DNA of 55,436 nt from a virus. The notes below the pieces were generated by a model, which was not told where the DNA came from, searched no databases, and saw only the letters and a list, made by a program, of their open reading frames with translations. The position numbers and the translations under genes were made by a program. Positions 29,182 to 29,478 of the stretch are shown here, piece by piece; position 1 is the stretch's first letter; each line of letters starts with the position of its first letter. The stretch spans positions 1 to 55,436 of the IMG/VR virus record IMGVR_UViG_3300033153_012477, one strand, 5' to 3'.

Positions 29182-29313
29182 TGAGGGTTCAAACGATTAG
29201 ACAGTTTTTCGTGCTCTAACCAACTGAGCTACCCATCCCCGAAGGGATATAGTGGGACTCGAACCCACGCCACGTCGTTACAAGCGATGAAAGTCTAAAA
29301 TCTACGCCACTCA
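29182..29313 (-). ncRNA. Circularly permuted tRNA / YrlA-like Y RNA, anticodon UGU
   Basis: Order on the RNA: end helix TGAG, motif TGGCGTA, helix (GATT)TTAGAC, a full anticodon arm (CATCG/CGACG around loop CTTGTAA, anticodon TGT), variable TGGC, T arm GTGGG/CCCAC, acceptor strand TATATCCC, tetraloop TTCG, acceptor strand GGGATGGG, D arm GCTC/GAGC, then GTCTAATC, GTTTGAACC and end helix CTCA. So the tRNA is opened between positions 26 and 27 and closed at the acceptor end by a C(UUCG)G loop. The outer part matches the Ro60-binding stem architecture of bacterial Y RNAs, and the inner part their tRNA-like module. 132 nt, the same length as its neighbour. Terminator directly downstream. Confidence 0.82.
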
Positions 29314-29346
29314 CATTCATTTTTTTTTAAAATAAAGATATAGAAA

Positions 29347-29478
29347 GACGGGTTCAAACGAACAGACAAATTTTAGTGCTTTATCCAGTTAAGCTACAAA
29401 ATCCCGAAGGAGATTGAGGGGATTCGAACCCACTATCACTCGTTTAGCATACGAAGTAAGCCTACTCTACGCCACGTC
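29347..29478 (-). ncRNA. Circularly permuted tRNA / YrlA-like Y RNA, anticodon GCU
   Basis: Same architecture as 29182-29313 with a different sequence: end helix GACG/CGTC, motif TGGCGTA opposite GTTTGAACC, helix GAGTAGGC/GTCTGTTC (8 pairs with three G-U), anticodon arm TTCGT/ACGAG around loop ATGCTAA (anticodon GCT), T arm GTGGG/CCCCT, acceptor strands CAATCTCC and GGATTTTG joined by TTCG, and D arm GCTT/AAGC. The compensatory changes relative to the neighbour support the fold. It starts 20 nt after the Ro60 stop codon and is probably on the Ro60 transcript. Confidence 0.82.

What the first reader, a model, noticed from the sequence alone, without database searches (positions are those of the whole stretch)
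29182..29478. Two circularly permuted tRNAs with complete anticodon arms (UGU and GCU), acceptor closed by UUCG
Both 132-nt RNAs run anticodon arm, T arm, acceptor 3' strand, TTCG, acceptor 5' strand, D arm, so the tRNA is opened between positions 26 and 27. The anticodon arms have U33, A37 and A38 and 4-5 stem pairs, features not needed in a mere tRNA-like decoy. Either the RNAs are YrlA-type mimics that kept a decoding-quality anticodon arm, or they are permuted tRNA genes that can be cut and resealed into working tRNAs. The C(UUCG)G cap argues that the acceptor end usually stays closed. The GCU element lacks a serine-type variable arm. Permuted tRNA genes are known from some algae and archaea, not as a phage feature I am aware of.
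Basis: partly seen in the sequence, partly recalled or inferred. Interest (0 to 1): 0.92.

Follow-up and report, generated by a model that had tools for sequence, protein, structure and literature searches.

The report
Phage Y RNAs mimicking whole tRNAs
Beside its Ro60 protein gene, this phage encodes two small RNAs that copy an entire transfer RNA in rearranged order, anticodon arm included, plus a third RNA that is the same molecule cut open at the other end; most likely they are partner RNAs of Ro60 that imitate tRNA, not working tRNAs.

Summary
The two elements are real. E2 (29479..29347, -) and E1 (29313..29182, -) lie directly downstream of a Ro60 (TROVE + vWA) gene. They are YrlA-type Y RNAs: a Ro60-type stem formed by the RNA ends, then anticodon arm, T arm, acceptor stem capped by UUCG, and D arm. 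The anticodon arm is a family feature, seen in about half of 63 parsed phage and bacterial relatives. U33, purine 37 and A38 are conserved; anticodon positions 34-35 vary freely, even between RNAs about 95% identical. Loop geometry is kept but codon identity is not, which argues against working permuted tRNAs. Covariation shows a split anticodon stem: pairs 27-43 and 28-42 come from the D-arm side, pairs 29-41 to 31-39 from the RNA's 5' side. The Ro60 stem thus enters at 28/29, not 26/27. Five such genes occur in four viruses, one archaeal. Best reading: new variants of bacterial Y RNA acting as Ro60-bound tRNA mimics; the effector is unproven. The primary YrlA papers could not be read, so the arm may already be described.

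The parts
29182..29313 (-). E1: armed YrlA-type Y RNA, anticodon loop CUUGUAA (UGU), acceptor stem capped by UUCG, ends pair as Ro60-type stem (UGAG/CUCA outer pairs)
   Evidence: sequence; Rfam YrlA 26.9 bits; 5/5 anticodon-stem pairs in split model
29347..29479 (-). E2: armed YrlA-type Y RNA, anticodon loop AUGCUAA (GCU), acceptor stem capped by UUCG
   Evidence: sequence; Rfam YrlA 23.1 bits; the same loop in L003 and L098 with the 31-39 pair changed U-A to A-U
29273..29287 (-). E1 inner anticodon hairpin: pairs 29-31 with 39-41, loop, and 42-43
29439..29453 (-). E2 inner anticodon hairpin: pairs 29-31 with 39-41, loop, and 42-43
28659..28793 (-). E0: acceptor-open permutant. Complete tRNA body with normal 5' and 3' ends, ACCA encoded directly after it, Ro60-type stem inserted in the anticodon arm
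   Evidence: Rfam tRNA 45.2 bits over the whole model; 86 bits, E 1.2e-17, with a model built only from artificially permuted YrlA RNAs; MFE folds as cloverleaf plus Ro60-type stem, z -2.05
28709..28754 (-). Ro60-type stem inside E0, closed by loop UGUUAAAA
   Evidence: shares GUUUGAACCC and GUGGCGUAGA with E1 and E2
31088..31142 (-). short Y RNA without tRNA-like domain, upstream of Ro60
   Evidence: GUGGCGUAGA..UACUUC..AUUUGAACCC
30351..31076 (-). Ro60, N-terminal reading frame (TROVE 54-204)
   Evidence: Pfam PF05731, E 2.5e-13
29498..30397 (-). Ro60, C-terminal reading frame (end of TROVE plus Ro60 vWA domain)
   Evidence: Pfam PF05731 E 1.7e-10, PF25045 E 1.7e-7
199..1392 (-). RtcB tRNA-splicing ligase gene; possible functional partner, not adjacent
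   Evidence: Pfam PF01139 E 1.5e-108; only copy in the record

Best explanation
E1 and E2 are YrlA-class Y RNAs made by the phage as partners of its Ro60. The RNA ends pair into the stem that Ro60 is known to bind in such RNAs. The other end folds into a tRNA mimic that here is complete: D arm, T arm, capped acceptor stem and a 5-pair anticodon stem with a U-turn-type loop. The Ro60 stem branches off the 5' strand of the anticodon stem (28/29). The mimic part most likely hands Ro60 a tRNA-binding partner (PNPase in the studied systems) or occupies a tRNA-binding enzyme; what is selected is the general shape of the anticodon loop, not a codon. E0 is the same molecule opened at the acceptor instead of at the Ro60 stem, and can arise when two tandem copies lose their outer halves. 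Shown here: sequence homology, fold, covariation, Ro60 linkage, two permutations. Inferred from the literature: Ro60 binding and tethering. Unknown: effector, expression, ends in vivo.
For: Ro60 gene adjacent. Rfam YrlA matches. 63 parsed relatives from phage contigs and bacterial genomes with the same conserved Ro60-stem motifs. Covariation of the whole fold, 27 of 32 pairs with changes on both sides, 0/500 shuffles. Split stem: 28-106 CG19/GC1 and 29-105 CG14/UA6 against one-sided UG/UA for the alternative. U33, R37, A38 conserved; 34-35 the fastest columns. Acceptor capped by 3-6 nt in 29 of 32 parsed armed RNAs. E0 found by a YrlA-only model. Function of YrlA and PNPase tethering as reviewed in PMC8394870 and PMC7790460.
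Against: No expression or binding data. The Ro60 of this record is in two overlapping frames with a deletion relative to L003, so it may be inactive here. Scores are below Rfam's YrlA cut-off. Single-sequence energies of E1 and E2 are unremarkable. No PNPase-type gene in the record, so the effector would have to be the host's.
Confidence: 0.78

Rival explanations
1. Permuted tRNA genes: the RNA ends are cut away, the anticodon stem is sealed (RtcB), the UUCG cap is cut out by RNase P and a 3' nuclease, CCA is added, and working tRNAs for UGU and GCU result.
For: Order of halves matches permuted tRNA genes; re-linearised E1 and E2 are called tRNA-Thr(tgt) and tRNA-Ser(gct) by ARAGORN; RtcB is encoded; a Thermofilum permuted tRNA has only 1 nt between its halves (PMC3978253); three relatives (L022, L024, L034) carry ACCA and a 30-nt linker at the acceptor.
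Against: 34-35 vary freely between close homologues; A34 anticodons in 6 of 29; the GCU copy has no long variable arm; conserved Ro60-stem ends and Ro60 linkage are unexplained; most Ro60 viruses searched lack RtcB; no tRNA-splicing endonuclease is known in bacteria (own knowledge).
Confidence: 0.05
2. Decoys: the Y RNAs bind or inhibit host anticodon nucleases (or other anticodon-loop enzymes) during infection; varied 34-35 follow an arms race.
For: The complete anticodon loop is kept although nothing needs to be decoded; different copies in one genome carry different anticodons (E1/E2; L083 ACG and GUC); PMC7790460 proposes YrlA as competitive inhibitor of a RecA-dependent tRNA nuclease.
Against: 34-35 are no faster than freely covarying stem columns once all columns are compared, so diversifying selection is not shown; in Salmonella YrlA was not cut (PMC7790460); the arm also occurs in bacterial chromosomes.
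Confidence: 0.25
3. RNA-repair platform: Ro60, Y RNAs and RtcB together mend cleaved tRNAs, the mimic serving as scaffold.
For: RtcB, Ro60 and Y RNAs in one genome; the same trio in Salmonella operons (PMC7790460) and in HGTV-1.
Against: RtcB lies 28 kb away in this genome; of 20 other Ro60-bearing records searched only HGTV-1 had RtcB, although 11 of them are fragments.
Confidence: 0.12
4. E0 is an ordinary intron-bearing tRNA whose intron is spliced out; its likeness to Y RNA is accidental.
For: Normal tRNA ends with CCA, complete tRNA model; HGTV-1's counterpart is annotated 'tRNA-Asp + intron'.
Against: A YrlA-only model ranks E0 first in the window at 86 bits, against 54 for the best ordinary tRNA; all five genes of this type lie near Ro60 genes; no group I intron match; E0's loop lacks U33.
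Confidence: 0.06

Closest known systems
YrlA, bacterial Y RNA (Rfam RF02553; Salmonella YrlA structure 6CU1)
   Same: Ro60-type stem from the RNA ends; tRNA-like part in the permuted order T arm, capped acceptor stem, D arm; Ro60 gene adjacent
   Different: Rfam's YrlA model has no hairpin between Ro60 stem and T arm; E1/E2 and about half of the relatives parsed here have a complete anticodon arm with a split stem
Circularly permuted tRNA genes of algae and Thermofilum (reviewed in PMC3978253)
   Same: 3' half precedes 5' half; acceptor ends joined
   Different: No sign of a working tRNA product: anticodon not conserved, mostly no CCA, ends form a conserved Ro60-type stem, linkage to Ro60
Intron-bearing tRNA genes, including the HGTV-1 'tRNA-Asp + intron'
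   Same: E0 has normal tRNA ends and an insertion in the anticodon arm
   Different: The insertion is the Ro60-type stem with both of its conserved strands; no group I intron; insertion in or beside the 5' strand of the anticodon stem
Short Y RNAs of Ro60 loci
   Same: Same Ro60-stem motifs (GUGGCGUAG, UACUUC, UUUG..CCC), for example window 31142..31088
   Different: No tRNA-like domain

Membership tests
YrlA / bacterial Y RNA | encoded close to a Ro60 (Rsr) gene | tested here: met
   TROVE and Ro60 vWA matches 19 bases from E2
YrlA / bacterial Y RNA | 5' and 3' ends pair into a Ro60-type stem with conserved strands | tested here: met
   Motifs shared with relatives; helices 38-43:81-86 and 57-61:66-70 covary
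YrlA / bacterial Y RNA | tRNA-like domain of T arm, capped acceptor stem and D arm | tested here: met
   Rfam alignment of E1 and E2 over model positions 27-81 and 24-84
YrlA / bacterial Y RNA | score above Rfam's gathering cut-off (69 bits) | tested here: not met
   26.9 and 23.1 bits; the Rfam model lacks the anticodon hairpin. This is a curation threshold, not a biological feature; relative L003 scores 44.5
YrlA / bacterial Y RNA | binds Ro60 and tethers an effector such as PNPase | not testable with these tools
   needs pull-down or structure
Circularly permuted tRNA gene | 3' half upstream of 5' half | tested here: met
   sequence
Circularly permuted tRNA gene | bulge-helix-bulge motif at the termini | not tested
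   not searched for; the termini pair as the Ro60-type stem
Circularly permuted tRNA gene | anticodon and identity kept as in a functional tRNA | tested here: not met
   34-35 differ in most related pairs; GCU without long variable arm
Circularly permuted tRNA gene | mature aminoacylated tRNA is made | not testable with these tools
   needs RNA sequencing and charging assay
tRNA gene (E0) | complete tRNA body with free ends | tested here: met
   Rfam tRNA 45.2 bits over 1-71; ACCA follows
tRNA gene (E0) | usable anticodon loop | tested here: not met
   insertion at the anticodon loop; the remaining UGGUAAA has no U33

The most novel reading that the evidence does not exclude
One ring-shaped RNA design is used in both of its openings: closed-acceptor Y RNAs (E1, E2) and open-acceptor, CCA-ended ones (E0), the latter being processed by tRNA enzymes and possibly charged, so that Ro60 carries a true tRNA-ended RNA; RtcB may join or re-open the forms.
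Probability: 0.12. Interest if true: 0.9.

Novelty: new variant of a known kind. Interest (0 to 1): 0.62.

Why it matters
What bacterial and phage Y RNAs do is an open question. The known tRNA-like part has D, T and acceptor features only; here a large set keeps a whole anticodon arm with U33, R37 and A38 while leaving the codon letters free. That points to a partner that feels the anticodon loop (a nuclease, a modification enzyme or the ribosome) but does not read a codon, and makes it testable by point mutation. The open-acceptor permutants link tRNA genes and Y RNAs directly and suggest how one becomes the other through tandem copies. Cultured phages with armed arrays next to Ro60 (Caulobacter phage CcrColossus) make experiments possible, and such RNAs are at present partly annotated as tRNAs.

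Tried and rejected
Nucleotide search of 28600-31100 against phage records: no match. The exact E0-type pattern with TTTGAACCC gave nothing; further E0-type searches gave no new virus beyond L025, L098 and HGTV-1. High-scoring R1 hits in tandem arrays (L068, L070, L074 and others) looked like E0 but are halves of neighbouring YrlA copies. Diversifying selection at 34-35 was considered after and not claimed, because freely covarying stem columns are nearly as fast. The first split-stem count had the T arm and acceptor written one column off; one search is the valid one. Minimum-energy folding as evidence for E1/E2: uninformative. PNPase domain and DNA-ligase-type RNA ligase in the record: none found.

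Full report
The observation. On the minus strand, directly after the C-terminal part of a Ro60 gene, lie E2 (29479..29347) and E1 (29313..29182). Each starts and ends with strands that pair with each other (GUGGCGUAGA near the 5' end, UCGUUUGAACCC near the 3' end). Rfam's YrlA model matches T arm, acceptor hairpin and D arm of both at 26.9 and 23.1 bits, significant but below its cut-off of 69. Single-sequence folding energies are not remarkable (z -0.9 and -0.2), so the case rests on comparison.

Setting. The record is a 192,712-base virus record. Transcription order on the minus strand is: short Y RNA (31142..31088), Ro60 N part, Ro60 C part, E2, E1, thioredoxin, E0, and a second tRNA with a long anticodon-arm insertion (28649..28553). 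RtcB is encoded at 199-1392, 28 kb from this cluster. A tmRNA and ten tRNAs found by ARAGORN are in the window.

Relatives. Two viral contigs with a related Ro60 (53% identity) have a YrlA RNA (L003, 44.5 bits) whose anticodon loop AUGCUAA equals E2's while the closing pair 31-39 is changed from U-A to A-U. A pattern of the conserved pieces, with the anticodon loop left free, found 27 viral stretches and 37 bacterial genome stretches, from which 63 YrlA-like RNAs were parsed; a few of these are chance or misparsed matches. Placing the arm only by the ACUUCG motif, 29 have a stem of at least four pairs; of these 25 have U33, 26 A38 and 28 a purine at 37 (binomial p 7e-12, 4e-13 and 6e-8; the sequences are related, so the p values are guides only). 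About half of the parsed RNAs have no such arm, so it is a variant and not universal.

The fold. Twenty armed YrlA RNAs were rearranged in silico so that the acceptor ends are open and the Ro60 stem is closed by UUAA, then aligned. With the split anticodon stem 94.3% of cells pair, 27 of 32 pairs show changes on both sides, and none of 500 shuffles reaches the observed covariation score. Pairs 27-43 and 28-42 are made by the strand right after the D arm (CG19/GC1 and CG14/UA6, all cells paired). Four sequences in which the C of UUCGN cannot pair at 29-41 have a G at the matching D-side position (rows). In this model E1, E2, L003, L025, L098 and HGTV-1 all have five Watson-Crick pairs. The Ro60 stem therefore enters the 5' strand of the anticodon stem at 28/29.

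Codon identity is not kept. In 33 related pairs positions 34 and 35 differ in 88% and 76% of pairs, against 12% elsewhere and 9% at 33 and 38. In a column-by-column comparison 34 and 35 are the fastest columns but not far above freely covarying stem columns, so I read them as unconstrained rather than as proven targets of diversifying selection. Caulobacter phages CcrPW and CcrColossus have orthologous RNAs about 95% identical that differ at exactly 34 and 35 (UAG, CUG) plus a few linker changes. Six of 29 have A34, which bacteria use almost only in tRNA-Arg (own knowledge). Re-linearised, 30 of 34 are called tRNAs by ARAGORN, so the mimicry is complete, but identity is not conserved.

The opposite permutation. 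E0 (28793..28659) scores 45.2 bits as a complete tRNA and is followed by ACCA, like the other tRNAs of this phage. Its anticodon arm holds the Ro60-type stem closed by a loop. To avoid circularity a model was built only from permuted YrlA RNAs, without any E0-type gene; it finds E0 at 86 bits (E 1.2e-17), two genes in L025 at 115 and 68, one in L098 at 91, and HGTV-1's annotated 'tRNA-Asp + intron' at 46.5 bits, which is within the range of ordinary tRNAs (best 54). HGTV-1 therefore rests mainly on its aligned Ro60-stem features and is the weakest of the five. In all five the acceptor strands pair 7/7 with each other and not with an upstream strand. All four viruses carry Ro60 genes nearby. 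L025 was found by the RNA pattern; L098 and HGTV-1 were found through Ro60, so that linkage is partly by selection. No E0-type gene was seen in the bacterial stretches. In E0 itself the whole 27-31 strand is on the D side and the loop lacks U33. Tandem YrlA copies contain an E0-like segment between their acceptor caps (E2-E1 straddling match at 56 bits), which suggests how one form gives rise to the other.

Mechanism. Studied YrlA RNAs tether Ro60 to PNPase and are modified by tRNA enzymes (PMC8394870, citing Chen 2013 and 2014). I take tethering or occupation of a tRNA-binding partner as most likely here, with the anticodon loop as an added contact. Steps shown: homology, fold, permutation, Ro60 linkage. 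Steps inferred: Ro60 binding, effector, benefit to the phage. The record has no PNPase domain. This Ro60 is in two frames with about 16 residues missing relative to L003, so in this genome the RNP may depend on re-initiation or be decaying.

Known and new. YrlA in phages, and the circular permutation of YrlA relative to tRNA, are known (PMC7765460, PMC11472068). In the papers that could be read I found no description of a complete anticodon arm with a split stem or of acceptor-open permutants, but the primary YrlA papers are not held, so novelty of the arm is provisional. I file E1/E2 as a new variant of a known kind.

Noticed in passing
window 29498-31076 (-): Ro60 is split over two overlapping frames; compared with L003 about 16 residues are missing and the frame shifts at the break, so it may be broken, re-initiated or an assembly error.
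   Followed up: partly
L003:1783-3973: Ro60 of the relative is interrupted by an ORF that looks like an HNH homing endonuclease (judged from its sequence, no family search run).
   Followed up: no
window 28553-28649 (-): Second tRNA-like gene beside E0 (32.2 bits) with an extended anticodon arm and encoded CCA; its tip UCGUGUUAAAGCG resembles E0's loop; no Ro60 motifs.
   Followed up: partly
L022:754 (-), L034:3935 (-), L024:3267 (-): Three armed YrlA RNAs have ACCA after the acceptor 3' strand and a 30-nt linker before the 5' strand, as in permuted tRNA genes; ACCA is kept while the linker differs.
   Followed up: partly
L176:3365-3432 (CcrColossus), L178:2502-2576 (Kikimora): Parts of Y RNAs upstream of Ro60 genes are annotated as tRNA-Gln and tRNA-Ser; these look like annotation errors.
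   Followed up: partly
window 54923-54998 (+): tRNA with CUA anticodon (called tRNA-Pyl by ARAGORN), probably an amber suppressor.
   Followed up: no
window 51368-52981 (+) and 5113-5580 (-): Phage-encoded GroEL and a tmRNA.
   Followed up: no
L098:8019-8151 (+): tRNA-like gene with a long insertion but without Ro60 motifs.
   Followed up: no
armed YrlA family, loop positions 36-38: Nearly all loops end in UAA or GGA, the sequence contexts of t6A37 and m1G37 modification enzymes (own knowledge); the 36-38 context varies less than 34-35.
   Followed up: no
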